Origin: Apostichopus japonicus
Taxonomy: Eukaryota > Echinodermata > Holothuroidea > Aspidochirotida > Stichopodidae
Length of the DNA stretch: 64,000 bases
Assembly (NCBI RefSeq): GCF_037975245.1
Contig: NC_092568.1
Coordinates: 11,865,501-11,929,500, forward strand
Direction: 5' to 3'
Below, piece by piece: positions 11,386 through 64,000 of this stretch. The position numbers and the translations under genes are program-made. The first letter of the stretch is position 1. Each line of letters starts with the position of its first letter. The notes under the pieces are model-generated. The model saw nothing but the letters and a program-made list of their open reading frames with translations. It ran no database searches and was not told the DNA's origin.

Positions 11386-14300
11386 TCAGCACTGCAGGTA
11401 AAGGTGACGATCATCTGTTATGAAATGAAGAAAAGAAGAATGACACCTCAACAAAAATTTGGCCGAAGAAGTTCGTGTAACTATACGATTACTTATAATT
11501 GTATGGAATGTAAAATGAAGAAGTATTTACAGTTAAGGTCCGCATTAGGGACTCGTCCCTCATAACAAAGCTGCCTTTGCAATTGACTGACGAAAAGTGA
11601 CGAAAGAAAAAAACGAAAAAAAAAAAAAAAAAAAAGGTTATCCACTAAAGAGCCTTTGTAAGAGAATGTGTAAAAGTAGGAGGGCCTGAGATTTCAATCC
11701 TAGCGAAAATTTACTAACATTGCACTATATATACATTTTCTATATAATGCACTCTTACATAAACCGCACAGTATTGTAAACGTGTGGCGTATTCCATTCA
11801 GTGATGAAATGTCTCTAAATTGATATTTACTCATTTTAATTATCTAATAATGTATATTGATGGTGGAAATTTGTATCATACCATTAGTGAACACGTCGTC
11901 TCCTTTCCCTGCTGGGTAGGTTTGTTTGATGAAGAAAAAACCGTCTGTTGGTAAATAAGAGGATCGTCAATATGAAAATGTAATCTCAGAAAGGTCAAAG
12001 GTCGATATGACTAGTTCGAATCTTTATACGTTGAAGAAACCTTGTTCTGTCGTTATTGCTTTATTTTACTATAAAATATTTTAAGGAAAATAGTATATAA
12101 CTCAGTTGCTTGCCAGGGAGGGGGTGGCCCCTTTCTCCATAGTCAGTGGGAGGGAGCCTCAGTAAGGAGATATTCGGTCGGAAAAGAATAACACCACTCC
12201 TCTGGGCCCACTGACATCCTGAGGTGTAGAACCAGGGAGTATGGGGTGAACAGGCCGCTTTTCAGACTCACTCAGAAATTATAAAGTATTTATTAGCACA
12301 AAACGGGAGTCGGCTTCAAAGACCACATGGCCACATCCTTCCTTTAAGAACCCTTGATCCCACCTTTTTGAAATCATGTGCACGTCTGCTGATGTAGCTC
12401 AAGACATAGCAATGGTAAACGTGTGTAAAATAATCCTATATGTTATGTCCAGTCATTGGTTAATCCTTTGTTACAGAATAACGTACTTATTTTAAATAGT
12501 TGCAATCTTTGAAATAAATATACAAACCTGATTGTCGTAGGTCTATCTCCTCAGCCTGGAATTCGTAACTTCCATCTGTAAAATAAATAAACAATTTGAT
12601 AATTATTGCAAAGGGAAATTTTAACCCCTAGTTGCGTCATTAATTTTCAATCAAACGGCGAAAATAAAGACGCATGCGTATACGTCTCATCGATGAATAG
12701 AAGAAAATACTTCCAAGTGTGATTGTATACAATGTTCATATAATTCTTATATCTCGATACTCGATATATAGTTCAATTGAGATGAGTAAATTATTACCAT
12801 TCGTAGTCGTTTCCGACACACTGTGACTGTAATAAGTATCATCTATAAACAAGAAAATACAAAATAAATTTATTTGTCTTCAATCGGCCTATGACGGAGA
12901 ACAAAGGAAACATGTGAGATATTTATACGATATTTAAATTGTCATGACTTGGCCTTTACAAAGGTGCTGCCTGCCCCTCCCCTAGAAAGTTATTGCCAAC
13001 CCCCTCCCCGGGAATATGCAATGAATGACTACAGGATTGCATTAAGAATGTTTTTTTTTCGCTTTTTAGATGAATCCTTTAACGGTAATAGAGATACAAA
13101 CTCTCACAGAAGAGTAACGTTAACGTATACATTTGCATTAATCGATTCATAATTACCTGTGCTGGTCGATTGGTTTGATGACGTCACTACAGTGGATGAA
13201 ACTCCATCTATATATAAGACAAGGATATGGTATTAGAAGGGCACTACTAAAAAGCAAATGAACAAAGCAACACCAACAACGTATAATATAGCCTACTGTG
13301 ATATCCCCTTGACCATGATGGGATATATATCGGTAAAAGCGCGAAGGTATCATAAATTTATTGATCTATATTTATAAAAATTGAGAGATTCACGATTCTC
13401 AGAGTAACATTATTTTTCGATATTAATCAAATTATGATACGAATATTTACTGTAATATATCACTAAATGACTGTAACAATATTATTTCTGATAAAAATCA
13501 CTCACCAGTTGAGATTCGCTGATCCTGATATACTGTAGTTGTGACGTCACCATCTGGAAGTACAAATGTTTAGAAGTATTGATTATATTTTGATACCTGC
13601 AAGCCTCGGGACACAATCTTTAATACAAAATGTTTGTTACTTCAAGTGGTCTACATTTTTTCATTTACCGTACTTGACACAGTAGGTACATTACAATATA
13701 AAATAATATAGAAACAAGAGTGTGAAAGGTTAAGTTGGTTTTCTTGACATTTACATTTTTACTTTATTACTTTCGTAAATATTAGTTTACACAAGATAGC
13801 TTAGAAATGAAGGTTAATGGTCTTTACTAAACCATACCTGATACAGTTTCCTCCGAGCCACTCTGAGTTTGACTCTGAAATGATGTCCCGTCTGATGATA
13901 CAATTTGTAAATCAAGTTAATTACAAAACTGCAACTTGTTAAAAAAAAAACTTTACTGTAATCCGGTTCATGTATTCTTATTTTTATCCTTTACATGGCA
14001 ACTGTTTGTAGCAGCTATTTAATTCCAAACTATGGTAATATAACAACATAAAGAACAGAGAAAGATCAAATAAGTTTAATAAACGCAGAGAAACTTGATT
14101 ATTTATCTTTTGAAGTCTTTTAACTTTATGAAGAGCAGATCGTGTTAGGTTAAGAATCATTTTACTCATATTTTATATAAATAAATCCAACTCACCACTA
14201 ATACTGGTCTGCAAACTGAATTGTTTGTTTATTGTTGTTTGCTTTCCAGCTAAAATAAGAAGGGAACAAAATAATAAATTTGTAAATTATACTGGGTGGG

Positions 14301-17300
14301 TGGCGCTCCATAAATTATAAAAGCCAACAATGATAAATTGACAATAGGAAGGTTATATAAGTATTCACGATATTATCAAAGGTATGGATTTCCTTCCATC
14401 GCTGTGCGATCGTATATCAATGCATGTATATCAATGACAGAGGTATATAGCTACTTACCTACTACAGTGTTATCAGTGATGTGGCTAAGCTCTTCCTTGC
14501 CAATCCCAAAAACTGTGAACGAGGAGAGTAATTTACAACAAATTATGGATTATTTAATAATTACAAATGTAACCGTATCGATATTATACTGAAGCATTGT
14601 GAGTTAAAACTTCCACGATTATGTTTTGTACAGTGATGAAGAGTAGGGTGAATGGACTGGTGGAAAGATGAGGAAATTTGATAAACACATTATTATGTTG
14701 ATGAGAAGCTAATTATGTCTTACGACTGTTTCAAATAATAACTAAATTAATAATTGGGTAAAATAATAAATTATAACAAAATAATGAACAGTAGGTTACT
14801 CACCAGAGTAATCACACTGTTGAATGTCCTGTGTATGGGTGATAGTTTGACCGTCTGTAAACAGAGAATATATTACGTCACATCATAATATGACAGAATA
14901 ATAGGCAATCAAAGGTATTATAAATCTATAAGAATACTTAATATATAAGATAAATTGTAATTTGATATTCATAATTCCTTATCATTATTATTTATTATTA
15001 TTATTAAATATTTGAAATTACAAACCTTCGGTTTGAGTTGTTATCTTATTCGCCTTCAGTTGGTATGAAGACACCCCATCTGTCAGAGAAAGGAAAGAGG
15101 AATCCATTAATATCGCTGAAACAATAAACTCACAGAAAAAGTCACAGTGTCGATGACGTTAAGGCTATATGTTTACTTGTTGTAAGTAGTCAAGGAGCCG
15201 TAATAGCTCTAAGAAGTAATCCTTCACACACCACTGTTTATCCCCTTCTATACCTCCAGATGATACAGTATATATTGAGCATAAGTTACGCCCACACCCC
15301 CACCCCACCCGCCAAATGAACATCCGAAGAGAAACACCTTGGCAATGACATGTGACACAATATAGCGACACTTACCAGTCCAATAGTACATGTATTTGGT
15401 GGCTGTCTTGGTACCGGTCGGATCTGAAAGAAATATGAAGAAGCATTTTGAAGTAATAATTTCAAAAGTACGTGTTAGAATTTAAAAGAAAAATCAATCA
15501 AAACCTCCTTGGTGTAAACAAACAATCTATTTTTCTCACCTGTTAGAGTTTCCTCGGTGTTTTGGATCTGATCAGGGCCTGCAAAGATTGTCAAATTATG
15601 TTATATTTGAAAACAGTCAAGAAGACTTTTATTACATAAATCTCAGATTTATTACCTTGAGTAGAAATTACAGAAAGAAATGAAAGATTAATATTTAATT
15701 TTTCATATCAATTGAGTTTTAACTTTTCTTGCGCACAATACGTAATTCATTTTCACTCAATACTCACCAGTTGAACTTTTGAAGGTATACTGGTAGTAAG
15801 TCAGGGTGTAACCTGAAAAGCACAAAATGTGACTTATCTCGTCAAAATGTTTTACCTACTGATAAATAGTTAATACGGGACTGCAGAGACTTCCACAGGT
15901 GACCCCCACCACCACACAGTCTTGAAAAAGAAGATACACCTAGATGCTTTAATATAATGTAACCATATATTATAGCCTACCGACTACAGTGAGTGTTACT
16001 TTACCTTCACATCTCGTTGTTGTGGTCTGTTGAGTGTGTTGGCCCTGAATATCTGCAGCGTGAATAAAATTTGGGAAGATTTTATGAAATAATCTTAAAC
16101 ATTTATGACATCGATAGTTTGTTTTCTTCCCTTAGCTTTCTCTTAGGTTTTACTTATTGGCGATGTACTGTGCACCAAGTTCCATATCGTTTATGGTATA
16201 AAAAGTCACGAAAATGATGAAGTAAGGAATGGAAACAAAATATATCTTACCAGACCAGGTAGAGGTAGTATCATCTTGTTGATGCATCTCGAAGGCAGCA
16301 GGGGTCGTGTACTGCTCGACTACAAAATAAAATATATAATCAAGTGATGGTCTGACGAAAATATTAAATTGTTAATGGATTTTTATTCCATATCTTTAGT
16401 ATACTAATCACAAAAGAATTTCACATGAAATTCAAACAGTCCAAATTATTTAAGTCTTTAGAGATATTTTAGTCTGTAGAGATATGTTAGTCTGAGAGAT
16501 AATACGGTGAATCGAGGCAATAACTCGACTCACGATGACTTGCCGATTTTATGATGGAATGACTCGTGATACAGATCTCGAATGTAAGTAACCATATTCA
16601 GAACACGAATGTAAGTAACCATATACAGAACACGAATGTAAGTAACCATATACAGAACACGAATGTAAGTAACCATATACAGAACACGAATGTAAGTAAC
16701 CATATTCAGAACACGAATGTAAGTAACCATATTCAGAACACGAATGTAAGTAACCATATACAGATCAGGAATGTAAGTAACCATATCAGATTGCGAGGTC
16801 TGCATTCTGATATTTTCTATTCGGCAGTGAAGTGATAGAAGGGGGAATGGGTGGATGTCATGAAGAGTGTAGCAAGAGTGGATGAGGTGAGAGGGGCGGT
16901 AACGAGAAGAGAGAGACTGTGAGTGTGTGTATGTGTGTTCTGATACTACAGGCATTCAGTAAAGATAACAACAATGAAACCTTTCTTTAAAAAAAAACTC
17001 ACCTCGAGGTAAATTAATGATCCCAAAGTAACCGCTTGGAATCAGTAACATTCTCTCAGGATCTAAAGGAAAGATTAAGTACAAATTATAAAGTATCGAA
17101 TGATAAAAAAACGGGTAGTATGCCCAAAAGTATTTAATGAGTTTTACGTACAATCTCGTTCGTCTTCAATATTTTGGGTATACTGTACTACGTATAAAGT
17201 TCAACTTACCGTTCTTGTGATCGAGAGGAACACGTGAAGGAAGGCCTTGAATGAGGCGTTCTGCTGCAGTAAAGAAAGAAAAGAACAAACTTATATAGCA

Positions 17301-19610
17301 ACAATTAACAACTATTTCAAACCGTCATCATAAAACCAGTTAAATGGTTTTGTGGTCATTTAATTAAAGTATATTGTACCCATATTTCTTTCAATACAAG
17401 AAGTCATAGTAACTCACCTTCAAATTTTGCCAGCATAAAATCAGGATAAAGTCTTAGCTGGTCTTGCATCGTAAGATTAAGATGGCCTGAATGGGAGTAA
17501 AATGCTAATTAACAACTTTATAGTTTAATGTAAAGTTTGAATTTAATTTGTATGTGATCTTGTTTTATGAATGGTCAGCGAACATATTTCTTTTATAAAT
17601 GAGACTCCTAACTATGTGCTTGAACGTGAAAATTAGTATTCATTATGTAAAGGAAGAGATGATTGCACTTACTGTTAAAAAGATCTTCACGCATGCGCAG
17701 GGTTTGCTCTAAAAAAAGAAGAGAGTTTCCATATATATGTGAAAGTGAAATCATCTGAGCATTAATGTTATTAAGTGACACACACACGCATACACACAAA
17801 AAAAGTAAAGCAAGCACAGAAGTTGTTAAAAACATTCATGGAAACTTAAAATTATTTATGAAGTTCTGAAGGACGATGCATGGTTCGGATGTTTGTAATT
17901 AGAGGGCGGTAGCAAAATTAACAGCCGTCGGTCATGGAATTGTATATGAATGCTAAGTTAATGTAAAGAGTACTGTAGAAACTAGAAAAATAAACTTGGA
18001 GAAATACCTGATGGAAAGCAAAGAAGCGAAGAAACATTTTCTTCGGTGACGGGAAATTCCCGATTGAAGGGTTTCCGTTTTAGATCTATGTAGATGAAAA
18101 CAGTGATAAGAACGATGTCTAAACTACATAGCTTCACTTAGAATCGGAATGCAAGACTATCACGTCACCATGTACATTGGAGGGGGTTGGGTGGGGGTGG
18201 AGGGGCATTATGAGAGTGTATGGTCGTCTCATCTTTACCTTACTCACCGTGGAAGGAAAAGCAAACCAGAGAATCATACCAGGAGAATGATTAACTATAT
18301 ACACATACCTCGATTCTGAAAGTTTTCCTCTCCTTACCCTGTAAGCTACCATAGGATCCCCCCTCCCCGCATCCGTCCCTTCCAATCCAAATTATTATTG
18401 AAGTCACTGGTCAATATATTATATGCTATTCCTCTATTTAATGGATCTATTAATAATCACGTGATATAAATACTCGCCCATAATTGGATGACGTAATTTG
18501 ACTTTGACCTACACCTTACCTTGAAACGGAGGACGGTACCCGTAACATCCTTCTGGGAGGATGTATTGAGCTGAGGATAAACGAAAATATATCTGACTAA
18601 CTATGAAGATGAATTCAGTTTCTTTTAATGACTTGCCTTATATTTTGGTTAGTATATGGAATCAGAAACATTGTATGCAGAGATCTGATATAAGTCTTGT
18701 TAGGCGTCACTATGGACGGGGTGTGTGCTGGGCTAGCTTTTTATAAGGGTTTTTATATTAAAATTTTTTTTTGACTGAGATCAGTAATTCATGTTACCAA
18801 GAAATATTGGACTCCTCAAGGGTAAGGAAGGGTCAGGGAGGGGTGGGGAGATGGAAAACTTTAAATGGAAGGGAGAGAGAAAGAGACCCAACCTACCTCC
18901 ACGTTGAATGAACTGAATATAGGGAACTTTTCCGAACGCTTTATAGAGCATTGAAAATGCAAATTATGATCGTTGAACAATTTCTCTCAGTTATCTGCCT
19001 TTCCAATATTGACAATCGATGTTACATTCACCTACTATAAAACACGTAGTTAATGAAATGCGTCACGCACAGTAACGGTGGCCTGGCCATCCAGGTCCCC
19101 ACAGCACCTCACCCTTACCCCACCCCCTACACACCGTACCAAATTATGTGTTGAGATTGGCCTATTAAGTGATGTCATGTTTTATCTTATTGGATTGTTT
19201 ATGAAGCAAACATAATATTTGACAATCCCGTTATATAGGTATACGCTTTATTCGGACTTACAGTTACCGTAAGAAAAAGGTAACAATAAAATCGTGCACA
19301 AACTTAATATTACTGGCGTATGGAATATCATGTAGGAATTATATACATGTAGGAATGATATTTAACTAGTGAGATGATGTCTAAATTGAACTAATTGTCC
19401 TATAAAGTTAGTATCATTTCGCAATACGAGAAATTCCAAATAACTCGAGGACATCATATAGCGTTCCACATAAAATGACGACTGAAAATGGAAAAATTAA
19501 CATATATTTGTTGGTCTTAACTTACCTCGACCATAGGCCAGGAATTTGGTGAACTTCCTAGCCATGTAAGAGGAAGCATAGTAGCTTGCCATTGAGAATG
19601 TAAAGAACAT
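11386..19610 (-). CDS. Gene A: micro-exon gene of unrecognised family, 23 exons, 410 codons
   Basis: Function unknown. Exons 5' to 3': 19526-19610, 18520-18570, 18008-18085, 17673-17708, 17418-17486, 17210-17263, 17003-17062, 16251-16319, 16005-16052, 15768-15812, 15540-15578, 15376-15423, 15026-15079, 14804-14854, 14459-14512, 14196-14249, 13838-13891, 13506-13553, 13157-13207, 12798-12842, 12528-12575, 11882-11944, 11386-11414. All introns are GT-AG and phase 1, and all internal exons are multiples of three. Joined, they give one frame of 410 residues ending at TGA. Exons 1-7 encode an aromatic/basic region (for example LPEGCYGYRPP, LQDQLRLYPD-type and LLIPSGYFGIINLPR motifs). Exons 8-22 encode 13-23 residue Thr/Ser/Gln/Asp/Tyr-rich cassettes. 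I see no clear signal peptide, membrane segment or known domain. The start is the ATG at 19608-19610 because an upstream in-frame extension is closed by a stop in gene B. Further tiny exons may have been missed. Confidence 0.85.
16571..16790. repeat. 27-bp minisatellite in intron 7 of gene A, 8 copies
   Basis: Eight copies of a 27-bp unit containing AATGTAAGTAACCATAT, differing by a few bases. Since 27 is a multiple of three and the unit has no stop in the relevant frames, both strands show open frames (16566-16835 plus, 16530-16955 minus). These lie inside an intron and are not genes. Confidence 0.92.
18897..18938 (-). CDS. Probable additional exon 2a of gene A
   Basis: A 42-nt segment with an AG acceptor (CTCTATAAAG) and a GTAGGT donor, phase 1 at both ends, encoding AFGKVPYIQFIQRG. 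It would fit between exons 1 and 2 without shifting frame and raise the product to 424 residues. It is identical in gene B and broken in gene C. Its polypyrimidine tract is weak, so it may be optional or cryptic. Confidence 0.55.
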
Positions 19611-19723
19611 CTTGAGAAATCGCACAATAGACTTATCTTCAACAAAGAGCAATTGCAATATAAACATTACATTACATATGTACCTTATAATGTTTATCAT
19701 CGTTGTCCATTTTTTTTACTGTG

Positions 19724-19731
19724 TGACGTCA
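19724..19731. promoter_or_regulatory. Proximal CRE palindrome upstream of gene A
   Basis: TGACGTCA, the full cAMP-response-element palindrome bound by CREB/ATF-type bZIP proteins, about 115 bp upstream of the start codon. It is conserved upstream of genes B and C. Confidence 0.55.
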
Positions 19732-19811
19732 CATGTACAGTAACGCTCGCGCAATGATCACTCAGTGCGTTTCAACAAGTTACGCTCCGAGATCTGTTGT
19801 GTCCTTCGAAA

Positions 19812-20606: not shown

Positions 20607-20888
20607 CTCGTTGTACATATACCCATGTAGTATCAGTTCCTTCCGGAATAACAAAGCCACCATCATTCCACCCGACATCCTTGGGTGGATCATTACCCGG
20701 AAGAGATGTTTCACACAAATTTCAGGATTTTTCACAAGAAACCGCAACATTTTCCGGGTTTCCGTCGATCTGACCCGACGTAAACTCACATGGGAGTGCT
20801 AACCATTCCCCACCCATCCACCACAGGTTTGCCAGCCCAAAGTCAGGATAGAGTTTTAGCTGGTCTTGAAGCGTGAGATCAAGATAAA
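20607..20888 (-). pseudogene. Broken chimeric family exon upstream of gene A
   Basis: The minus strand starts with a sequence nearly identical to exon 5 of gene C (YLDLTLQDQLKLYPDFGLAN). It then runs without an intron into about 70 codons of unfamiliar sequence and ends at a good GTAAG donor. With an AG acceptor (CATACTTAG) before it, the block is 282 nt, phase 1 at both ends, like the real exons. One in-frame TGA lies about two thirds along. The part after it (VGWNDGGFVIPEGTDTTWV) loosely recalls exon 7. Most likely a gene remnant; a rarely used alternative exon is possible. Confidence 0.6.
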
Positions 20889-26551: not shown

Positions 26552-29500
26552 TCAGCACTGCAGGTAAAGGTGACGATCATCTGTTATGAAATGAAGAATA
26601 GAAGAATGACACCTCAAAAATAAATTGGGCCGAAGAAGTTCGTGTAACTATAAGGTCCATGAATAGTTCGGGTTATTAATTATACCAGTTTGGAAAGCTG
26701 CCTTTGCAATGAACGAAAAGTGACGACAGAAAAAAACTGTTAGTAAACTGCTTATCCACTAAAGAACCTGTGTAAGAAAATGTTTCAAAGTAAAAGGCCC
26801 CGACGTTTCGATCCTAGCGAAAATCCACTAACATTGCAGCGAGAAGTATACAGTTTATATACATGTTCTATAAAATGTAAACTTACGTATACCGCACAGT
26901 ATTGCAAACGTGTGATGTATTCTATTCAGTGATGAAATGTCTCTAAATTGATATTTACTCATTTTAATTATCTAATAATGTATATTGATAATGTAAATAT
27001 GTATCATACCATTAGTGAACACGTCGTCTCCTTTCCCTGCTGGGTAGGTTTGTTTGATGAAGAAAAAACCGTCTGTTGGTAAATAAGAGGATCGTCAATG
27101 TCAATCTTATAGTGGCTGTGAAAATGTAATCTCAGAAAGGTCAAAGGTCAATATGACTAGTTCAAATCATTATTCGTTTAAGAGAGATTGTTTCTGATGT
27201 TATTGGTAACATTACTACAAAATAGTTTATGGATAAAGAAAAAATATAAAATCAGAGGCTTTCCCGAGTGGGGGTGGCGCTTTTCTCTATAGTCAGTGGG
27301 AGGAAGAGAATAATACCACTCCTCTGGGTCCACTGACGTCCTGAGGTGTAGAACCAGGGTGTATGGGGTGAATGGGCCGCTTTTAAGACTCACTCAGAAA
27401 TTCAAAAGTATTTATAAGCCCAAAACTTGCGTTAGATCGAATTACAGACATAATTTCTAAATATACCCCAGAACGCATCATTTTTGATGTCTGCATATTT
27501 TATGCTTATTCGGGAGTCGGCTTCAAAGACCACAGGTGCCACACCCCTTCCGATAAGAACCCTTGATCCGCCTCTGTACATTCTACGGTCATGCCCCTAC
27601 GTAAATCTGGGCAAATTTAGCAATTAGCCCCCCCCCCCCAATCTTTTAAATCCTGTACATGTCTGCTGATGTAGCTCAAGAAATAGCCATGGCCAAACGT
27701 GTGTAAAATAATCCTATATGTTATGTCCAGTCATTGGTTAAACTTTGTTACAGAATAACGTACTTATACTTTAAATAAATGGAATCTTTTGAAGTAAATA
27801 TACAAACCTGATTGTCGTAGGTCTATCTCCTCAGCCTGGTATTCGTAACTTCCATCTGTAAAATGAATAAACAATTTGATAATTGTTGCAAAAGACAGAC
27901 TGTTACTCCGAGTTGCGCCATAAATATGAAATCAAACGGCGAAAATAAAGACGCATGCGTATACTTCTCATCGATAAATGTAAGAAAATGCTTCCAATTA
28001 TGTGTATACAATTTTCATATTATTCTTATATCTCGACGCTCGATAACATACTTCGTAGGGAATTTTAATATTTCGATCGAACGACTTAAGAAAATTCAAT
28101 CTTCGTAATGTGTCTGCCAATATTTGTTACAATTATTGTTTTGTGTAATATTGATAATATATTATGACAGGCTATACATGGAAGTCGTTTTGCTGATTCT
28201 TTTGTATTATGTGTTACGGTATTGTAAATAAATACAGTGGAAAAAAAAGGATACATGTGTCGCGCAATTGAAATGAGTAAATTATTACCATTCGTAGTAG
28301 TTTCCGACACACTGTGGCTGTAGTATGTATCATCTATGAAATAAGAAAAAACAAAATAAATTTATTTTGTCTTCAATCGGCCTATGATGGAGAACAAAGG
28401 AAACATCGTGAGATATATATATACGATATTTAAATTGTCAGGACTTGGCCTTTAGAGAGGTTCTGGCTGCCCCTCCCCTCGCTTTTTAGATGAATCCTTT
28501 AACGGCAATAGAGATACAAACTCTCATGTATACATTTGAATAATCGATTCATAATTACCTGTGCGGGTCGATTGACTTGATGACGTCACTACATTGGATG
28601 AAACTCCATCTATATATAAGACAAGGATATGGTATAAGAAGGGCACTACTAAAAAGCAAATGAACAAAGCAACACCAACAACGTATAATATAGCCTACTG
28701 TGATATCCTCTTGACCATGATGGGATATATATCGGTACAAGTGAGAAGGTATCATAAATTTATTGATCTTTATTTATAAATATTGAGAAATTCACGATCC
28801 TCAGAGTAACATCATTTTTCGATATTAATTAATTATGATACGAATATTTACTGTAATATATCACTAAATGACTGAATCAATATTATTTCTGATTAAAATC
28901 ACTCACCAGTTGAGATTCGCTGATCCTGATATACTGTAGTTGTGACGTCATCATCTAGAAGTAAATACAAAGGTTTAGAAGTAATGATTATATTTTGATA
29001 CCTGCAAGCCTCGGGACACAATCTTTAATACAAAAGGTTTGTTACTTCAAGTGGTCTACATTTTTTCATTTACCGTACTTTATACAGTAGGTACATGACA
29101 ATATAAAATAATATAGAAACAAGAGTGTGAAGGTTAAATTGGTTTTCTTGACATTTACATTTTTACTTTACTTTCGTAAATATTAGTTTACACAAGATAG
29201 CTTAGACATGAAGGTTAATGGTCTTTACTAAACTATACCTGATACAGTTTCCTCCGAGCCACTCTGAGTTTGACTCTGACATGATGTCCCGTCTGAGGAT
29301 ACAATATGTAAATCAAGTTAATTAAAAAACTGCAACTTGTTAAAAAAAACTTTACTGTCATCCGGTTCATGTGTTCTTATTTTTATCCTTTACATGACAA
29401 CTGTTTGTAGCAGCAATTTAATTCCAAACTATGGTAATATAACAACATAAAGAACAAAGAAAGATCAAATAAGTTTAATAAACGAGTTTCGCAGAGAAAC

Positions 29501-34907: not shown

Positions 34908-35019
34908 CTTGAGAAATCACACAATAGACTTATCTTCAACAAAGAGCAATTGCAATATAAACATTACATTACATATGTACCTTATAATGTTTATCGTCGT
35001 TGTCCATGTCATTTCTGTG

Positions 35020-35027
35020 TGACGTCA
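35020..35027. promoter_or_regulatory. Proximal CRE palindrome upstream of gene B
   Basis: A perfect TGACGTCA about 115 bp upstream of the start codon, matching gene A. Confidence 0.55.
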
Positions 35028-46500: not shown

Positions 46501-49500
46501 AACAACATAAAGAACAAAGAAAGATGAAATAAGTTCAATATACGAGTTTCGAAGTCAAACTCGATTATTTATCTTTTGAAGTATTTTAAGAAGAGCAGAT
46601 CGCGTTATGTTAAAATTCATTTCATTCATATTTTATATAAATAAATCCAACTCACCACTAACACTGGTCTGCAAACTGAATTGTTTGTTTGTTGTTGTTT
46701 TCTTTCCAGCTAAAAAAAAAGAAGGGAAACAAATTATAATTTTGTAAATTATACTGTGTGGCGTTCCATAAACAATAACAGCTAACAATGATAAATTGAC
46801 AAGAGGAAGGTTATATATGTATTCACGACATTATCAAAGGTATGGATTTCTTTCTATCGCTGTTCGATCGTATAACAATGCATGTATATCAATGACAGAG
46901 GTATATAGCTACTTACCTACTACAGTGTTATCAGTTATGTGGCTTAGCTCTTCCTTGCCAATCCCAAAAACTGTGAACGAGGAGAGTAATTTACTACAAA
47001 TTATGGATTACTTAATAATTACAAATGTAACTGTATCGATATTATACTAAAGCAGTGTGCGTTAAAACTTCCACGATTATGTTTTGAACAGTTAATGAAG
47101 AGTAGGGTTGGTGGACTGGTGGAAAGATGATCATTATTATGTTGATGAGAAGCTAATTATGTCTTATGAATGTTTCAAATAATAAACTAATTAGTTATTG
47201 GGTAAAATAATAAATGATATTAAAATAATGGACAAAATGTTCCTCACCAGAGTAATCACACTGTTGAATGTCCTGTGTATGGGTGATAGTTTGTCCGTCT
47301 GTAAACACAGAATATAATGTAACATCATAATGTGACAGACTAAGGCAAAACAAAGGTATTATAAATTAATACTTAATATATAAGATAATTTGTCATCTTA
47401 TATTCATAGTTCCTTATCATTTATTATTATTATATATTTGAAATTACAAACCTTCGGTTTGAGTTGTTATCTTATTCGCCTTCAGTTGGTATGAAGACAC
47501 CCCATCTGTCAGAGAAAGGAAAGAGGAATCCATTAATATCGCTGAAACAATATACTTACAGTGTTGATGACTTTAAGGCTATATGTCTACTTGTTGTAAT
47601 TAGTCAAGGAGTCGTAATAGCTCCATGAATTAATCCTTCTCACATCAAAGTTTATCCCTTCTATACCTCCAGATGTTACAGTATATATTGAGCATAAGGT
47701 AGCCCCCCCCCCCCCTCCTCCCCAAATGGATCTCCAAAGAGATGGAAACACCTTTACAAGGACATGTGACACAATATGACGGTACTTACCAGTCCAATAG
47801 TACATGTATTTGGTAGCTGTCTTGGTACCGGTTGGATCTGAAAGAAATATGAAGAAGCAGTTTGAAGTAAGAATTTAAAATTATTGGTTAGAATTTAAAA
47901 CAAAAATCAATCAAAACTCCTTGATGTAAACAAACAATCTATTTTTCTCACCTGTTAGAGTTTCCTCGGTGTTTTGGATCTGATCAGGGCCTACAAAGAG
48001 TGACAAATTATGTTATATTTGAAAGACTTTTATTACATAAATCTACGGTTTATTACCTTGAGTAAAAATTATAGAAAGAAATGAAAGATTACTATTTCAA
48101 TTTTTCAAATCAATTGAGTATTAACTTTTCTTGCGCACACTTTTTACAATTTCACTCAATACTCACCAGTTGAACTTTTGAAAGTATACTGGTAGAAAGT
48201 CAGGGTGTAACCTGAAAAGCGAAAAAATATGACTTTTCTCGTCAAAATATGATAATTACAAGTAACTATTTGGCACGGGACTGCAGAGACTTCCCCAAGT
48301 GACCGACCCCCACCCCCTCCCATGTGTTGAAAAAGAAGATATACCTAAATGCTTTAATATAATGTAACCGTATATTATAGCCTACCGACTACAGTGAGTG
48401 TTACTTTACCTTCACATCTCGTTGTTGTGGTCTGTTGAGTGTGTTGGCCCTGAATATCTGCAGCGTGAATAAAACTGGCTAAAGTTTTTATAAACTTAAA
48501 AAACATTTGTTTTGACAATGATAGTTTGTATTTCTTCCCTTTTTTCTTAGGTTTTTCTCAGTGGTGATGTACTGTGAACAAAGAAGTTTCTCTCACAAGT
48601 TCGGATGCAATGCAGTACTGACTAAAAGCTTACCGTTTATAATATACAAAAGTCACGAAAATTATGAAATACTGAGTGGAAATAAAATGTATCTTACCAG
48701 ACCAGGTAGAGGTAGTATCATCTTGTTGATGCACCTCGAAGGCAGTAGGGGTCTTGTACTGCTCGACTACAAAAAATTCAAACATTCAAGAAAATATTTT
48801 TAGGCTTAGTTTAGGGCTTAATCAGATAAGAAAGTGCCGCTAATAATATGTAAGGGGATAAAGGATTGGGGGGGGGGGCGGATAATGTCGCTACTCCTTC
48901 TTATATCAGAGAAACTTTTTTTTCGATATGTTACTAAATAAGACTCGTTTTTTAGTGTCATATTTGTAATTTCATTAAATGGAAGTATATGTGATATGAA
49001 CAGTTGGGACACTTGAAGACCAAGAAATTTTAGTCACAGTGAAAGTGCTTCAACATTCAGTCGGAAGGGAAGTGTAGAGGGGAAAGGGAGTGACTGAAAG
49101 AGAAGAAGAGCATGTCAGTGAAATGTGTGGAGAGGAGGTAAGGAAAGGTAAGAAAGAGCGTTGGATGAGGGGCTTGGGGTATAGAGAAGGTCTGCATCTA
49201 ATACAAAGACCCAGTAGTTAATTAGAATTCTATCAAATTTAGTAAAAAAAATAACACATTCAATGAGATCTTGCTTTAAAACAATCAAACTCACTTCGAG
49301 GTAAAGAAATGATCCCAAAGTCACAGGAATTTGGAATAAAATAGATTCTCGCAGGATCTGAAAGTATAAAGATTAAAATCAGTTTAACTGGTCGAACACG
49401 GTTAGCATGTTTAATGAATAGTCTGATCTGTCTTACATGCGATAATACTGATATATGTAAGCTTAACTTACCGTTCTTGTGATCGAGAGGAATACTTGAA

Positions 49501-52054
49501 GAAAGTCTGTGAAGGAGACACTCTGTGGACCAAGAAATAATAATAACTAAACTTAAGATAAATGAAAAGAAAACTAAATCTATCATACCGTCTTTGAAAT
49601 AGTCTAACCACCTGTTCGTGTTCTAATAGTTAAATAATAATTATATGTGTATTTATTTCAATATAAGATCTCAAGTTCATAACTCACCTTCAAGGTTTGC
49701 CAGCCCAAAGTCAGGGTAGAGTTTTAGCTGGTCTTGAAGCGTGAGATCAAGATAGCCTTAGTATAGGAAAGGAGAATGTTAATTATAACATAGTTTATAC
49801 TAAAGTTTGACTTAAATAAGTTTACATGTTTTATGGTTTTTAACGAACGTATAAAGTTTGGATATTCAGTATCCGTCAAGATAGCCTCGAATTTGGAACA
49901 TAGAAGGTAATTAATAATAGTATTGTTTACATTAAAGTTTGACTTAAATAAGTTTGTCATCTCTCTACTTAAATGAACGTATATAATATGAATATTCATG
50001 AAGAGGTGATAAGCTTACTGTTGAGAAGATCTTCACGGATGCGTAGGGTTTGCTCTATAACAAAACAGAGAATGTATGATAGAGTCACATTAGAAGTAAT
50101 GTAATTATTCATTTTGATGATTCAAGAAACGAATACACACACACTCATACAAGAGAGGAAGTAAGGGAAGCGTTAAGAAAACAACCAACCGGAAAATTAT
50201 GAAGAGAAACGAGACACTGAATGGACGACGAAGAGTTTATAAATGACTATGGTCCGTGTCTTGTAAAATAGAGGGCAGTAGCAATTTACAGCCAATGGTC
50301 ACAGAAATTTATTGCGAAGTGTCATTATACAATTCAATTCAGAAGGTATGAATTGTTGCCAAATTGCAGACTGAACTTATACCTGATGGAAAGCAAAGGA
50401 GCGAAGAAATATTTTCTTCGGTGACGGGAAATTCCCGATTGAAGGGTTTCCGTTGTAGATCTATATAGAAACAATAAAAAATATTACAATTACAAAAAGT
50501 TTGTTACTAAAAGTATGTCTGTAAAAAAAGTATGTAAATAAATCATAAAGTATGTAAATCTTTGCTTGGAGACAGGAATAAAGATCTTTTATCAATAATT
50601 TCAATATATTACGTGGTGGGGAGGGGGAGGGTGGAGAGGTTGGTAGTGCTATGTGAGTGGACGGTCGTCCTATCATTTCCTTAATTACCCACCGGGGAAG
50701 GAAAAATTATAAAAGGAATCACACCGGGAGAATGCTTAACTATATAACCCGATTTTCAAAGCTCAGTTCCTCTCCTTACCCTCCAAGTCTTGACCTAGTT
50801 AAGTACGCTCTTACCACTTCTGCCCACATCTCATTTCCCCTTCCAGTAAAACACCATTTACTTAATGCACTTGCCAATGTATTATTCCTCTGCTTGGATA
50901 TATTATTCATGAGATATAAATGCTCAACCAAAATTGGATGACGTAATTTTGTTTGACCGACACCTTACCTTGAAACGGTGGACAATACCCATAACATCCT
51001 TCTGGGAGGATGTATTGAGCTGAGGATAAAGGAAAATATATCTGACTAACTATGAAGATGAATTCAGTTTCTTGTAATGACTTGCCTTATATTTTGGTTA
51101 ATATATGAAATCAGAAACATTGTATGCAGAGATCTGATATAAGTCTTGTTAGGCGTCACTATGGACGGGGTGTGTGCTGAGCTAGCTTTTTATTTTGGTT
51201 GGCATGTAAAGAAGAAACACTGTTGACTGAGATCAGCAAGTCATTTTCAATGACATATTGGACTCCTCAAGTGTAAGGATAGCGTGGGGTGGGAGATGGA
51301 CAACTTGAATTGAAAGGGACGAACTGAATATAGGGAACTGTTAGGAACGCTTTATAAAGCATTAAAATACAAATTATGATCGCTGGACAATCTTCTCTCA
51401 GTAATCGGCCTTCCTAATATTGACAATCGATGTTACATTCACCTACTATAAAACACGTAGTTAATGAAATACGTCACGTACAGAGTAACGATGGCCTGGC
51501 CATCCAGACCCCAACAGCACCTCACCCTTACTCCACCCTACACACCGTACCAATTGTATGTTGATATTGACCTATTAAGTGATGTCATGTTTTATCTGAT
51601 TGGATTGTTTATGAAGCAAACATAATATCTAAAAATCCCGTTATATAGGTATTACGCTTTATTCGGACTATACAGTTACCGTATAAAACACGGTAACAAT
51701 AAAATCGTACACAAAGTTAATGTTATTGGCGTACGTAATATCTTGTAGGAATTGTACACACAATAGGGTTCATCAAATCAAACAAACTTAAACTGATATT
51801 TAACATGTGAGATGATGTCTATATTGAACTAATTGTCCTATAAAGTTAGTATCATATCTTAATACGAGAAATTCCAAATAACTCGAGGACATCCCTTTGT
51901 ATAGCGTTCCACATAAAATGACGACTCAAAATGCAACAAATAAACATATATTTATTGGTCATAACTTACATCGCCCATAGGCCAGGAATTTGGTGAACTT
52001 CCTAGCCATGTAAGAGGAAGCATAGTAGCTTGCCAGTGAAAATGTAAAGAACAT
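43588..52054 (-). CDS. Gene C: micro-exon paralogue, 23 exons, 410 codons
   Basis: Exons 5' to 3': 51970-52054, 50969-51019, 50383-50460, 50019-50054, 49688-49756, 49472-49522, 49295-49357, 48698-48766, 48410-48457, 48167-48211, 47952-47990, 47790-47837, 47452-47505, 47248-47298, 46917-46970, 46656-46709, 46269-46322, 45931-45978, 45621-45671, 45275-45319, 44864-44911, 44047-44109, 43588-43616. The frame is fully open and phase 1 throughout. Exons 6 and 7 differ strongly from A and B (ECLLHRLSSSIPLDHKN against AERLIQGLPSRVPLDHKN; exon 7 reads DPARIYFIPNSCDFG at its start) and carry a one-codon loss and a one-codon gain that cancel. Exon 1 ends CGAT before GTAAGT, so the junction residue becomes Ser. 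The intron-7 minisatellite is absent. Exon 2a is damaged. Function unknown. Confidence 0.85.
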
Positions 52055-52166
52055 CTTGAAAAATCGCACAATAGACTTATCTTCAACGAAGAGCAATTGC
52101 AATATAAACATTACATTACATATATAGCTTATAATGTTTATTGTCGTTGTCCATGTCATTTCTGTG

Positions 52167-52174
52167 TGACGTCA
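52167..52174. promoter_or_regulatory. Proximal CRE palindrome upstream of gene C
   Basis: A perfect TGACGTCA about 115 bp upstream of the start codon. The distal partner at 52442-52449 reads TGACTTCA and has lost the palindrome. Confidence 0.55.
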
Positions 52175-57576: not shown

Positions 57577-57888
57577 AATCGATGATATGTCGATTTAAAT
57601 ACGTATATGTCCCTTTGAGTTGCTAGAAACTGGTGTAAGTCCAAGGAAATTGACTTCTACCGATTTAATTCGACATATCATCGATTTAAACTGGTAGATG
57701 TCGATTTAAATCGGTATATATCGATTTAAAATTACATATACCGATTTCATTTGACATATCATCGATATAAACTGGTAAATGTCGATTTAAATTGGTATAT
57801 GTCGATTTAAATTGATATATGTCGATTTAAATCGATGATATGTCGAAGGAAATTGGTATATGTCGATTTAAATCGGTATAAGTCGATT
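57577..57888. repeat. AT-rich palindromic tandem repeat, unit 4 (expanded)
   Basis: About 310 bp built from variants of a ~20-bp motif with TCGATTTAAATCG cores and TATATGTCGA spacers, including copies in inverted orientation. It is the same locus as 10047-10152, expanded about threefold. Confidence 0.75.
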
Positions 57889-59114: not shown

Positions 59115-62100
59115 TCAGCACTGTAGGTAAAGGTGACGATCATCTGTTTTGAAATGGAAAAAAAAAAGAAGAATGACACCTCAAAAATAAATTGTGCAGA
59201 AGAAGTTCGTGTAACTATACGGTCCATGAATAGTTCGGGTTATTAATTATACTAGTTTGGAAAGCTGTCTTTGCAAATGACGAAAAGTAACGAAAAAAAC
59301 CAAACTGTTAGGAAACTGCTTAAACACTAAAGAACATGTGTAAGAAAATGTGTCAAAGTAAAAGGCCCCGACGTTTCGATCCTAGCGAAAATTTACTAAC
59401 ATCGCAGCGAGAAGTATACAGTTTATATACATGTTCTATAAAATGCACTCTTACGTATACCGCACAGTATTGTGAACGTGTGATGTATTCCATTCAGTGA
59501 TGAAATGTCACTTTATTGATATTAACTAATTTTAATTATCTAATAATGTATATTGATAATGTAAACATGTATCATACCATTAGTGAACACGTCGTCTCCT
59601 TTCCCTGCCGGGTAGGTTTGTTTGATGAAGAAAAAACCGTCTGTTGGTAAATAAGAGGATCGTGAATGTCAATATTAAAGTGGCTGTGAAAACGTAATCT
59701 CAGAAAGGTCAAAGGTCAATATGACTAGTTAAAATCTTTATTCGTTTAAGAGACATTGTTTCTGATGTTATTGGTAACTTTACTACAAAATATTTTATGG
59801 ATAAAGAAAACAATTTAAAATCAGAGGCTTTCCCGAGTGGGGGGTGGCGCTTTTCTCTATAGTCAGTGGGAGGAAGAGAAAAATACCACTCCTCTGGGCT
59901 CACTGACGTCCTGAGGCGTAGAACCAGGGGTATGGGGTGAATGGGCCGTTTTTCAGACTCACTCAGAAATTCAAAAGTATTTATAAGCCCAAAACTTGCG
60001 TTAGATCGAATTATAGACATAATTTCTAGTCTAAATATACCCCAGAATACATCATTTATTTTGATGTCTGCACATTTTATGCTTATTCGTGAGTCGGCTT
60101 AAAAGACCACAGTGCCACACCCCTTCCTATATAAGAACCCTTGATCCGCCTCTGTACATTCTACGGTCATGCCCCTACGTAAATCAGTCTGGGCAAATTT
60201 AGCAATTAATCCCCCCCCCCCCCACATCTTTAAAATCCTGTGCACGTCTGCTGATGTAGCTCAAGAAATAGCCATGGTAAACGTGTGTAAAATAATGCTA
60301 TACGTTAAGTCCAGTCATTGGTGAAACCGTTGTTACAGCATAACGTACTTATTTTAAATAAATGGAATCTTTTGAAGTAAATATACAAACCTGATTGTCG
60401 TAGGTCTATCTCCTCAGCCTGGTATTCGTAACTTCCATCTGTAAGGAAAATAAACAATTTGATAATTATTGCAAAGGACAGGCTGTTACCCCGAGTTGCG
60501 CCATACATATGAAATCAAAAGGCGAAAATAAAGACGCATGGGTATACTTCTCATAGATAAATGTAAGAAAATACTTCCAAGTATGATTGTATATAATTTT
60601 CTTATATACTCATATCTCGACGCTCGATAACATACTTCGTAGGGAATTTTAATATTTCGATCGAACGACTTAAGAAATCCAATTTTCGTGGATGTGTCTG
60701 TCAATATTTGTTACAATCATTGTTTTGTGTAATATTGATAAAATTGTTATGAATGGCTATACTATACATATCGCTCAATTGAGATGAGTAAATTATTACC
60801 ATTCGTAGTCGTCTCCAACAAACTGTGGCTGTAGTAAGTATCATCTATGAACAAGAAAATACAAAATAATTTTAATTGTCTTCAATCGGACTATTACGGA
60901 GAACAAAGGAAACATGTGAGATATTTATACAATATTTAAATTGTCAGGACTTGGCATTTAGAAAGTTTCTGCCTGCCCCTCCCCTAGAAAGGCATTGCCC
61001 CCCTCGAAACTATACAATGAATGACTACAGGATTGCATTAGCATTTTTTTCTCGCTTTATAGATGAATCCTTTAAATGGTAATAGAGATACAAACTCCTA
61101 CAGAATAGTACCGTTGACGTACATTTGCATAATCGATTCATAATTACCTGTGCGGGTCGATTGGTTTGATGACGTCACGACACTGGATGAAACTCCATCT
61201 ATATATAAGACAAGGATATGGTATTAGAAGGGCACTTCTAAAAGCAAATGACCAAAGCAACACCAACAACGTATAATATAGCCTACTGTGATATCCCCTT
61301 GACCATGATGGGATATATATATATTTATGAATATTTAGAGATTCACGATCCTCGGAGTAACAGCATTTTTCGATCTTTATTAATTATGATATGAATATTT
61401 ACTGTAATATATCACTCAATGACTGAATCAATATTAGTTCTGATAAAAATCACTCACCAGTTGAGATTCGCTGATCTTGATATTCTGTAGTTGTGACGTC
61501 ATCATCTGGAAGTAAATACAAAAAGGTTTAGAAGTAATTATTATATTTTGATACCTGCAAGCCTCGGGACACAATCTTTAATACAAAATGTTTGTTACTT
61601 CAAGTGATTTACATTTTTTTCATTGACTGTACTTGATACAGTAGTTACATAACAATATAAAATCATATAGAAACAAGAGTGTGAAAGGTTAATTGTTTTT
61701 CTTGACATTTGAAGCAAAATAAGACTATATTTTCGTCAATATTAGTTAACATAAAGATAGCTTAGACATTAAGGTTTACGGTCTTTACTAAACCATACCT
61801 GATACAGTTTCCTCCGAGCCACTCTGAGTTTGAGTCTGACATGATGTCCCGTCTGAGGGTAAAAAGATTTAAATCTAGTTCACTACAAAACTGCAATTTG
61901 TAAAACCTCTTTATTGTCATCCGGTTCATGTGTTCGTATATTTACCCTTTACAGGAAAACTGTTTATAGTATATATAGTGCATATATTTTCGGTCAGTGT
62001 AGCAAATTTAGTCCCAAACTATGGTAATATAACAACATAAAGAACAAAGAAAGATCAAATAAGTTCAATATACGAGTTTCGAAGTCAAACTCGATTATTT

Positions 62101-63477
62101 ATCTTTTGAAGTATTTTAAGAAGAGCAGATCGCGTTATGTTAAAATTCATTTCATTCATATTTTAAATAAATAAATCCAACTCACCACTAATACTGGTCT
62201 GCAAACTGAATTGTTTGTTTGTTGTTGTTTGCTTTCCAGCTAAAACAAGAAACCTTCGGTTTGAGTTGTTATCTTATTCGCCTTCAGTTGGTATGAAGAC
62301 ACTCCATCTGTCAGAGAAAGGAAAGAAGAATCCATTAATATCGCTGAAACAATATACTTACAGTGTTGATGACTTTAAGGCTATATGTCTACTTGTTGTA
62401 ATTAGTCAAGGAGTCGTAATAGCTCCATGAATTAATCCTTCTCACATCACTGTTTATCCCTTCTATACCTCCAGATGTTACAGTATATATTGAGCATAAG
62501 GTAGCCCCCCCCCCCCTCCTCCCCAAATGGATCTCCAAAGAGATGGAAACACCTTTACAAGGACATGTGACACAATATGACGGTACTTACCAGTCCAATA
62601 GTACATGTATTTGGTAGCTGTCTTGGTACCGGTTGGATCTGAAAGAAATATGAAGAAGCAGTTTGAAGTAAGAATTTAAAATTATTGGTTAGAATTTAAC
62701 ACAAAAATCAATCAAAACTCCTTGATGTAAACAAACAATCTATTTTTCTCACCTGTTAGAGTTTCCTCGGTGATTTGGATCTGATCAGGGCCTACAAAGA
62801 GTGACAAATTATGTTATATTTGAAAGACTTTTATTACATAAATCTACGGTTTATTACCTTGAGTAAAAATTATAGAAAGAAATGAAAGATTACTATTTAA
62901 ATTTTTCAAATCAATTGAGTATTAACTTTTCTTGCGCACACTTTTTACAATTTCACTCAATACTCACCAGTTGAGCTTTTGAAGGTATACTGGTAAAAAG
63001 CCACGGTGTGACCTGAAAAGCGAAAAAAATATGACCTTTCTCGTCAAAATGTGATAATTACAAGTAACTATTTGACACGGGACTGCAGAGACTTCCCCAA
63101 GTGACCGACCCCCACGGCCCACCCCCTCCCATGTGTTGAAAAGGAAGATATACCTAAATGCTATAATATAATGTAACTATATATTATAGCCTACCGACTA
63201 CAGTGAGTGTTACTTTACCTTCACATCTCGTTGTTGTGGTCTGTTGAGTGTGTTGGCCCTGAATATCTGCAGCGTGAATAAAATTGGCTAAAGTTTTTAT
63301 AAACTTAAAAAAAACATTTGTTTTGACAATGATAGTTTGTATTTCTTCCCTTTTTCAAAAGTCACGAAAATTATGAAATACTGAGTGGAAATAAAATATG
63401 TATCTTACCAGACCAGGTAGAGGTAGTATCATCTTGTTTATGCACCTCGAAGCCAGCAGAGGTCTTGTACTGCTCGA
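59115..63477 (-). CDS. Gene D: micro-exon paralogue, 5' end outside window, internal deletion
   Basis: Exons present, numbered as in gene A, from exon 8 onward: 63409-63477, 63219-63266, 62968-63012, 62753-62791, 62591-62638, 62254-62307 (exon 13), 62186-62239 (exon 16), 61799-61852, 61458-61505, 61148-61198, 60800-60844, 60391-60438, 59578-59640, 59115-59143. Exons 14 and 15 are deleted, leaving exons 13 and 16 separated by only 14 nt (GTTTCTTGTTTTAG), far too short for an ordinary intron. If those 14 nt are retained the frame ends at a TAG made by their last bases. If the compound 122-nt block is skipped as one exon the frame continues. All other cassettes are open and phase 1 and resemble gene C most. 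Exons 1-7 would lie beyond the window. Confidence 0.78.
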
Positions 63478-64000
63478 CTACAAAAAAAACACATTCAAGA
63501 ACATGTTTTGAGGCTTATTTTAGAGCTTAATCAGATAATAAAGTGTCGCTAATAATCTGTAAGGGGTAAGGGATGGGGGGGGGGGGGGTAACGTCGCTAC
63601 TCCTCTTATATCAGAAGGAACTTTTTTCCTCGATATGTCACTAAATAAGACTCGTTTTTGAGGGTCATAGGTTTAATTCTATTAAATGAAAGTATATGTG
63701 AAATCACATTAAGAGTTTAGTTGTTGCACCTACTAAGACCACTTCACTCTTAATACATGCAAGTAATTTTAGTCACTGTGAAAGTGCTTCAACATTCAGT
63801 CGGAAGGGAAGTGGAGAGGGGAAAGGGAGTGATGGAAAGAGAAGAAGAGCATGTCAGTAAAATGAGTGGAGAGCAGGTAAGGTAGGGTAAGAAAGGGCGT
63901 TGGATGAGGGGGTTGGGGTATAGAGAAGGTCTGCATCTAATACAAAGACCCAGTAGTTAATTAGAATTCTATCAAATTTAGTAAAAACAATACCACATTC
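63478..64000. other. Part of intron 7 of gene D
   Basis: Homologous to intron 7 of gene C (about 48767-49255), with a G-run near 63575 and purine-rich sequence around 63790-63920. It has no minisatellite. Exon 7 is expected just past the window end. Confidence 0.7.

What the first reader, a model, noticed from the sequence alone, without database searches (positions are those of the whole stretch)
11386..64000. Tandem family of at least four micro-exon genes of unrecognised function
Four paralogues lie head to tail on the minus strand in 15-16.6 kb units. Each consists of 23 tiny exons (29-85 nt) spread over about 8.4 kb, so coding sequence is only about 15 percent of the gene span. Exon positions, lengths and phases agree between copies. 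No single frame in the window reveals this gene: it appears only when exons are read between splice sites. I recognise no family. The layout recalls micro-exon genes described in schistosomes, but sequence similarity to them is not claimed.
Basis: partly seen in the sequence, partly recalled or inferred. Interest (0 to 1): 0.93.

Follow-up and report, generated by a model that had tools for sequence, protein, structure and literature searches.

The report
Sea cucumber strand-per-exon gene array
A sea cucumber carries a long array of near-identical genes, each cut into 23 tiny exons, and in the predicted protein each of thirteen neighbouring exons holds one strand of a large protein sheet; what the protein does is not known.

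Summary
The window lies in the sea cucumber Apostichopus japonicus. The same 23-exon model of a copy outside the window gives a RefSeq "uncharacterized protein" letter for letter (410 of 410). Corrections: copy 4 lost exons 14-15 and starts beyond the window; spacing is 15.2-17.0 kb. The array is larger: at least 20 first exons at 11.63-12.33 Mb, in two opposite blocks. All 12 copies read are open. Exons 8-23, where present, show no indels against copy 1; the introns beside them show 58-97 per copy. dN/dS is 0.24-0.37 in exons 8-23 and 0.58-0.80 in exons 3-7. Two old N-terminal types carry exchanged C-terminal halves. AlphaFold, at moderate confidence, makes residues 158-362 an up-and-down beta sheet with exactly one strand in each of exons 8-20. 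No Pfam family and no significant fold match was found. Function is inferred: most likely a self-assembling polar beta-sheet structural, adhesive or protective protein (0.4). A published classifier calls the layout "bicycle-like", but an echinoderm family is outside that lineage.

The parts
11386..19610 (-). Gene copy 1 (type I N-terminus), 23 exons, 410 codons, ATG at 19610, TGA ends 11386
   Evidence: exons 19526-19610, 18520-18570, 18008-18085, 17673-17708, 17418-17486, 17210-17263, 17003-17062, 16251-16319, 16005-16052, 15768-15812, 15540-15578, 15376-15423, 15026-15079, 14804-14854, 14459-14512, 14196-14249, 13838-13891, 13506-13553, 13157-13207, 12798-12842, 12528-12575, 11882-11944, 11386-11414
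26552..34907 (-). Gene copy 2 (type I), 23 exons, open
   Evidence: first exon 34823-34907, last exon 26552-26580; span 8356, coding 1233
43588..52054 (-). Gene copy 3 (type II N-terminus), 23 exons, open; exon 7 is 63 nt
   Evidence: first exon 51970-52054, last exon 43588-43616; span 8467, coding 1236
59115..64000 (-). Gene copy 4 (type II), exons 8-13 and 16-23 in the window; exons 1-7 lie beyond position 64000
   Evidence: (window joined to L029): exon 8 63409-63477, last exon 59115-59143; exons 14 and 15 absent
62186..62307 (-). Deletion scar in copy 4: exon 13 (62254-62307) and exon 16 (62186-62239) separated by 14 nt; exons 14-15 and most of the introns around them lost
17003..18085 (-). 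Exons 3-7 of copy 1: fast, two-type N-terminal cassette (residues 46-144)
   Evidence: dN/dS 0.58-0.80 by contrast; genomic exon 3-7 block splits types I and II by 0.47 substitutions per site
11386..16319 (-). Exons 8-23 of copy 1: beta-meander module (residues 145-410); exons 8-20 each hold one predicted strand
19611..19660 (-). 50-nt block directly upstream of the ATG of copy 1, 48 of 50 identical to the diverged 7.33-Mb copy (core promoter or 5' UTR, inferred)
34908..34957 (-). Same 50-nt block, copy 2 (47 of 50 identical to the 7.33-Mb copy)
52055..52104 (-). Same 50-nt block, copy 3 (48 of 50)
19724..19731 (-). TGACGTCA palindrome (CRE-type site, name recalled) 121 nt upstream of the ATG of copy 1
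   Evidence: present 113-124 nt upstream in 12 of 13 copies aligned (absent in copy 4)
35020..35027 (-). Same TGACGTCA site, copy 2 (120 nt upstream)
52167..52174 (-). Same TGACGTCA site, copy 3 (120 nt upstream)

Best explanation
Shown: a large tandem family of protein-coding genes in Apostichopus japonicus, 23 small exons in 11 of the 12 array copies read and 21 in the other, with all junctions in phase 1, so every internal exon can be added or lost without a frame shift. Inferred from structure prediction: the last 266 residues form an up-and-down beta sheet in which each micro-exon codes for one strand and the splice junctions fall in the turns; the donor-side G of the exon plus the next two bases make Asp, Gly, Ala or Val at the junctions of this half. 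Inferred from evolution: the C-terminal half is kept alike between copies by recombination and purifying selection, while the N-terminal cassette (exons 3-7) is old, two-typed and fast. Proposed function, least certain: a polar beta-sheet protein made in quantity (many copies, one shared conserved upstream block) that self-assembles edge to edge into a structural, adhesive or protective material, the N-terminal part giving specificity or targeting.
For: Gene models and selection. RefSeq protein identical to the 23-exon model of copy C8:11817367, 410 of 410. Two AlphaFold runs (whole protein; domain alone, 135 of 266 residues at pLDDT 70-90) give 13 strands at the same places; exons 8-20 hold one strand each (13 of 13), 2 of 12 junctions touch a strand end and none lies inside one, null mean 9.3-9.4, P about 0.005; with circular shifts 3 of 205 do as well (2 of 13 junctions). 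Strand residues 53% T/S/Q/N and 26% hydrophobic; C-terminal half acidic (38 D+E, 14 K+R) and 18.8% Thr. Mosaic trees. Copy 4 lost exactly two exons; RefSeq P0003 equals the 7.33-Mb gene with exon 4 skipped in frame. 50-nt block upstream of the ATG 47-49 of 50 identical to the 7.33-Mb copy in five array copies tested; intron windows reach at most 35 of 50. A precedent in the class: Holothuria leucospilota adhesive proteins without orthologues, almost wholly beta-sheet (PMC12472103, passages).
Against: AlphaFold confidence is moderate (mean pLDDT 45.7 and 63.6, pTM 0.35 and 0.50) from only three sequences, all of one species; the five models of the domain run spread from 63.6 to 35.7. No hydrophobic signal or membrane stretch (best 19-residue hydropathy 0.67), which speaks against secretion by the usual route. 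Composition puts the C-terminal half on the disordered side of a charge-hydropathy line, and no strand-like hydrophobic alternation exceeds shuffles (z -0.5). The exon peptides show no sequence repeat beyond the D/G start (mean z 0.01 over 105 pairs). Turn residues at junctions partly follow from the splice-donor G. The fast rate of exons 3-7 is not firm within type I alone. No expression data were seen.
Confidence: 0.4

Rival explanations
1. Immune or recognition family: the array makes many slightly different defence proteins; the fast N-terminal cassette binds variable targets and the beta-sheet half is a constant scaffold, kept alike by gene conversion.
For: Two deeply split N-terminal types; dN/dS 0.58-0.80 in exons 3-7 against 0.24-0.37 in exons 8-23; mosaic tandem array as in the sea urchin SpTransformer genes (PMC8634487, passages).
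Against: The ratio is not shown to exceed 1 (type I against II 0.82, 95% range 0.48-1.55; within type I 0.78, 0.27-3.83), so relaxed constraint explains it too; no immune domain and no leader-like hydrophobic stretch.
Confidence: 0.27
2. Membrane beta-barrel or pore-former: the strand-per-exon sheet closes into a barrel.
Against: No Foldseek match at E<=0.001 among 651 at E<=10, best E 0.023, query TM-scores at most 0.37 in the 50 rows shown; strands have no consistent hydrophobic face. Any up-and-down sheet would match these.
Confidence: 0.08
3. Mostly disordered low-complexity T/S/Q-rich protein; the predicted sheet is an artefact of a shallow alignment, and the small symmetric exons serve splice variation, as proposed for schistosome micro-exon genes.
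For: Charge-hydropathy and no alternation signal; low pTM; an exon skipped in a RefSeq model.
Against: No indels in exons 8-23 in 11 of 11 comparisons and dN/dS 0.24-0.37, stricter than I would expect of a disordered linker (recalled expectation); both predictions give the same strands, and junctions avoid them.
Confidence: 0.2

Closest known systems
Schistosome micro-exon genes (MEGs)
   Same: Many small symmetric exons that can be skipped in frame; proteins without known domains
   Different: Only 2 of 23 exons are 36 nt or less against about 80% of the coding region in 6-36 bp exons (PMC5825161, passage); no signal-peptide-like stretch found; beta-sheet module predicted
Aphid bicycle genes
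   Same: Many small internal exons, almost all starting at codon position 2; the published structure-only classifier gives 0.846-0.883 for 13 of 13 models, two of them 21-exon models (cut-off 0.72, coefficients from PMC9168663, section 17)
   Different: Echinoderm, not hemipteran; CYC motifs were not searched for; resemblance of gene layout, most likely convergent
Cuvierian organ outer-layer proteins (COOLPs) of Holothuria leucospilota
   Same: Sea cucumber orphan proteins, no domains, predicted to be almost all beta-sheet (PMC12472103, passages)
   Different: COOLPs are mostly long tandem repeats and come from the Cuvierian organ; here exon peptides do not repeat in sequence, and A. japonicus lacks Cuvierian tubules (recalled). 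Sequences not compared
SpTransformer (Sp185/333) genes of sea urchins
   Same: Echinoderm clustered family with mosaic members
   Different: SpTransformer genes have two exons and a leader (PMC8634487, passages); here 21-23 exons and no evident leader
PSP94-like tandem genes of A. japonicus
   Same: Species-specific tandem family in the same animal (PMC5638244, passages)
   Different: Described there as 11 copies with highly conserved cysteines; copy 1 here has 5 cysteines in 410 residues

Membership tests
Schistosome MEG | Short symmetric exons (6-36 bp) make up about 80% of the coding region | tested here: not met
   2 of 23 exons are 36 nt or less; definition from PMC5825161 passage
Schistosome MEG | Internal exons symmetric (multiples of three, same phase) | tested here: met
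   21 of 21 internal exons start at codon position 2 in each of the 11 array copies with 23 exons, 19 of 19 in the two 21-exon models
Schistosome MEG | Signal peptide, secreted | tested here: inconclusive
   Hydropathy only: best 19-residue mean 0.67; no signal-peptide predictor available
Aphid bicycle genes | Structure-only classifier above 0.72 | tested here: met
   0.846-0.883 in 13 of 13 models, reading 'phase 2' as codon position 2, as the paper states; under the other reading the score is about zero
Aphid bicycle genes | Belongs to the aphid, phylloxeran and scale-insect lineage in which homologues were found | tested here: not met
   Window genes match Apostichopus japonicus proteins; echinoderm
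Aphid bicycle genes | CYC motif repeats and N-terminal signal sequence | not tested
   No profile of the motif and no signal-peptide predictor was run
COOLP | Almost exclusively beta-sheet | tested here: inconclusive
   Met by prediction for residues 158-362 only, at moderate confidence
COOLP | Mostly long tandem sequence repeats | tested here: not met
   Mean pairwise z 0.01 among exon peptides 8-22 of copy 1, 105 pairs
COOLP | Expressed in the Cuvierian organ outer layer | not testable with these tools
   No expression data
SpTransformer | Two exons, exon 2 of mosaic elements | tested here: not met
   21-23 exons
GH11 xylanase | Member of the family by sequence | tested here: not met
   Profile match to PDB GH11 chains only at E 0.011 (domain bias 6.7 bits); no GH11 family listed in the Pfam scan of P0001-P0003 at E<=10
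Porin / outer-membrane barrel | Same fold | tested here: inconclusive

The most novel reading that the evidence does not exclude
The exon is the building unit of a beta sheet: each phase-1 micro-exon codes for one strand plus turn, so skipping or deleting exons trims the sheet strand by strand without breaking the frame (copy 4 lost exactly two strands, which keeps the up-down order). The array would then be a genomic kit for making sheet-forming proteins of tunable length, with interchangeable N-terminal heads.
Probability: 0.3. Interest if true: 0.8.

Novelty: new variant of a known kind. Interest (0 to 1): 0.58.

Why it matters
If exons really map one to one onto strands, this is an unusually clean case for the old question whether exons match units of protein structure, with many natural copies, lost exons and a skipped exon to test it on. 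It also gives an echinoderm counterpart to the micro-exon architectures known from flukes and aphids, showing that the layout arises in a free-living animal and that a structure-only gene classifier can flag an unrelated family. In the search made here the sequences carry only "uncharacterized" or "hypothetical" names.

Tried and rejected
An extra 42-nt exon between exons 1 and 2 (18897-18938) that keeps the frame was in my first model. Rejected because RefSeq omits it, it scored below threshold in 4 of 12 array copies, and its donor is not GT in the two type II copies where it was found.

Reading the conserved 5' block as coding: an in-frame upstream ATG is there in most copies, but by eye 4 of 13 aligned copies carry an in-frame TGA between it and the ATG used, and RefSeq P0001 starts downstream. 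Kept as promoter or 5' UTR.

GH11 xylanase relation: weak PDB match, no Pfam match. Viral origin: 93 stretches in viral contigs matched a pattern, none encoding a relative. PHROGs: only phrog_27400 at E 0.11 for P0003. VIA-align lists hold generic up-and-down sheets; absence of a family there was not used.

Lineage restriction: the profile search found only four A. japonicus proteins among 4773 candidates at E<=10, but a control with a peroxiredoxin-like stretch of P0004 also found only itself, so that search cannot show absence from other species and I make no such claim.

Print: no paper held both 'Apostichopus japonicus' and 'micro-exon'. In one search (at least 3 of 5 terms, 392 papers) the 8 listed had no micro-exon term. 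Searches listed nothing that I recognised as this family, going by titles and abstract starts of the rows shown. PMC5638244, PMC13228809, PMC5825161, PMC8634487 and PMC12472103 were seen as passages; PMC9168663 as passages and sections 6 and 17; the others in listings only.

The whole-genome copy count with exon 1 did not complete, so counts rest. The viral-library fold search did not complete.
Full report
What the window is. The window is C8:11865501-11929500 of a 671.6-Mb, 35-contig genome. The protein search places it in the sea cucumber Apostichopus japonicus: four proteins at E<=1 among 2146 candidates, all labelled A. japonicus, three of them 395-410 aa and uncharacterized. The same 23-exon model, carried to the copy at C8:11817367, is identical to P0001 over 410 of 410 residues. 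No window copy was itself identical to a returned protein; P0001 and P0002 stand for clusters of 2 and 4 members.

The observation. I read copy 1 from raw sequence and chained its exons by splice sites and frame. Exons were then carried to the other copies. Copies 1-3 have 23 exons over 8225, 8356 and 8467 bp with 1233, 1233 and 1236 coding bases, about 15%. Copy 4 (59115-66731) has 21 exons; exons 14 and 15 are gone and a 14-nt stub lies between exons 13 and 16. If the stub were kept the frame would shift, so splicing presumably joins exon 12 to 16 or exon 13 to 17; that is inference, and my open reading of copy 4 simply joined exon 13 to exon 16. Its exons 1-7 lie outside the window. Last-exon spacing is 15166, 17036 and 15527 bp.

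It is coding. Of 12 array copies read in full (8 in L009-L028, 4 in the window plus L029), 12 are open. Of 524 splice sites 520 are GT/AG; the four exceptions are the exon-6 acceptor, where an AG three bases on keeps the frame. Against copy 1, exons 8-23 where present have no indel in 11 of 11 array copies while the introns compared beside them have 58-97; exons 1-7 have none in 8 and one (a 3-nt difference in exon 7) in 3. Exon identity in the C-terminal part is 95.1-97.8%, intron identity there 88.6-92.8%. Variable columns at codon positions 1, 2 and 3 number 58, 50 and 89. pN/pS among type I copies is 0.40 in frame, 1.19 and 1.05 out of frame. All 22 junctions of copy 1 are phase 1.

How big the family is. 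A 1.1-kb query found 58 matching stretches, several per copy, and a protein query found exon 1 at 12 minus-strand and 7 plus-strand places between 11.63 and 12.33 Mb of C8; one search adds the first exon of window copy 4, so at least 20. The two strands form two blocks facing opposite ways. Outliers lie at 7.33 Mb (open over the 21 exons recovered; the fetched stretch ends before the rest; RefSeq P0003 agrees over 367 of 367 residues compared once exon 4 is left out and the exon-6 acceptor moved by one codon), at 7.09 Mb (12 of 24 query exons found, with frame shifts) and on C14 (fragments, 7 of 24). I read 12 of the at least 20 array copies in full; the plus-strand block was seen only through two partial loci (L002, L005).

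Mosaic evolution. Copies fall into type I (9 of 12) and type II (3 of 12: window copies 3 and 4 and C8:11635687). The genomic stretch from exon 3 to exon 7 splits the types by 0.47 substitutions per site with support 1.000, yet over exons 16-23 the type II copy C8:11635687 pairs with type I window copy 2, branch lengths 0.008 and 0.012, support 1.000. So C-terminal halves are exchanged between genes. Between types, exons 3-7 have dS 0.19 and dN 0.15 (ratio 0.80); exons 8-23 have dS 0.078 and dN 0.029 (0.36). Over all five contrasts the ratios are 0.58-0.80 and 0.24-0.37. Codon bootstrap of pN/pS between types: 0.82 (0.48-1.55) against 0.38 (0.24-0.59), reversed in 35 of 2000 draws; against the 7.33-Mb gene 0.63 against 0.31, reversed in 13 of 2000; within type I it is reversed in 159 of 2000, so that contrast alone is not firm.

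Upstream block. The 50 bases before the ATG are 47-49 of 50 identical between five array copies tested and the 7.33-Mb copy; intron windows of the same pairs average 22-23 of 50 and never exceed 35 (584-695 windows per pair). The intron windows were globally aligned and count gaps as differences, which lowers them; leaving gaps out, copy 1 and the 7.33-Mb gene are 75-77% identical in introns. Even coding windows rarely match the block (0-5 of 224 per pair). A TGACGTCA palindrome lies 113-124 bases upstream in 12 of 13 copies. A GATA-type AGATAAG lies inside the block (motif names recalled).

Structure. The whole-protein prediction has mean pLDDT 45.7; residues 1-156 are below 50, residues 158-362 form 13 strands. 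The domain alone gives mean pLDDT 63.6, pTM 0.50, 135 of 266 residues at 70-90, and 13 strands at the same places. Exons 8-20 hold exactly one strand each; of 12 junctions between them 2 touch a strand end and none lies inside a strand, against 9.3-9.4 expected when exon lengths are permuted and shifted (P 0.0048-0.0057 for the count, 0.0071-0.0083 for the inner count). An earlier test by circular shift was weaker: 3 of 205 shifts did as well, the unshifted one included. Exons 21-23 are in a low-confidence stretch and are not counted. Part of this match is built in: the last exon base is G in 21 of 22 exons, so nearly all junction codons are Asp, Gly, Ala, Val or Glu, and Asp-Gly favours turns. 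Foldseek found no PDB match at E<=0.001; VIA-align lists porins, TonB-dependent barrels and the apoB belt, which I read as the generic up-and-down sheet. Strands are 53% T/S/Q/N and only 26% hydrophobic, with no steady hydrophobic face, so a membrane barrel is unlikely.

How it probably works. Shown: open, selected genes; symmetric exons; mosaic array; shared conserved upstream block. Inferred: one exon, one strand; tolerance of exon loss; coordinated, probably strong expression. Guess: a self-assembling polar sheet used as structural, adhesive or protective material, with the N-terminal head giving specificity. The immune-recognition reading is the main rival. The lack of a signal-like stretch is a real weakness of both secreted readings.

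Comparison. The published bicycle-gene classifier, applied with its printed coefficients, scores 0.846-0.883 for 13 of 13 models, two of them 21-exon models (coefficients; phase wording). Since this is an echinoderm family, I take that as a false positive caused by a shared layout. Schistosome MEGs share exon symmetry but not exon size. Adhesive COOLPs of another sea cucumber are the closest in kind of protein, not shown to be homologous.

Noticed in passing
window 20828-20885 and 36126-36183 (minus strand): A copy of exon 5 (about 84% identical over its matched 58 nt) lies about 1.3 kb upstream of exon 1 in copies 1 and 2; one search shows such a copy at 7 places in the two stretches that hold the 12 copies read. 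Perhaps the rest of an older duplication.
   Followed up: partly
window 16569-16790 and 31905-32181: A 27-bp tandem repeat (8.3 and 10.3 units) sits in intron 7 of copies 1 and 2 and lies in the two longest ORFs of the window (141 and 165 aa), which overlap introns; Pfam gives one match below cut-off (DUF6405, E 0.0021).
   Followed up: yes
window 19724-19731, 35020-35027, 52167-52174: TGACGTCA palindromes at a near-fixed distance upstream of the ATG, and a second one 348-362 nt upstream in 8 of 9 type I copies.
   Followed up: partly
C8:11668027 (locus L013): This copy shows exons 1-3 of the 24-exon query twice in a row, a partial tandem duplication of the gene start.
   Followed up: no
window 17210-17263 and the same exon in other copies: Exon 6 acceptor: 8 of 9 type I copies have a tandem CAGCAG, while one type I copy, the 3 type II copies and the 7.33-Mb gene have only the downstream AG, which changes the protein by one residue.
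   Followed up: partly
P0004: An A. japonicus protein record (hypothetical protein BSL78_28099) joins the first exons of a family member to an AhpC/TSA-type redox domain, most likely a fused gene prediction.
   Followed up: partly
window 57647-57888: A tandem repeat with nested periods of 20, 41, 61 and 81 bp between copies 3 and 4.
   Followed up: no
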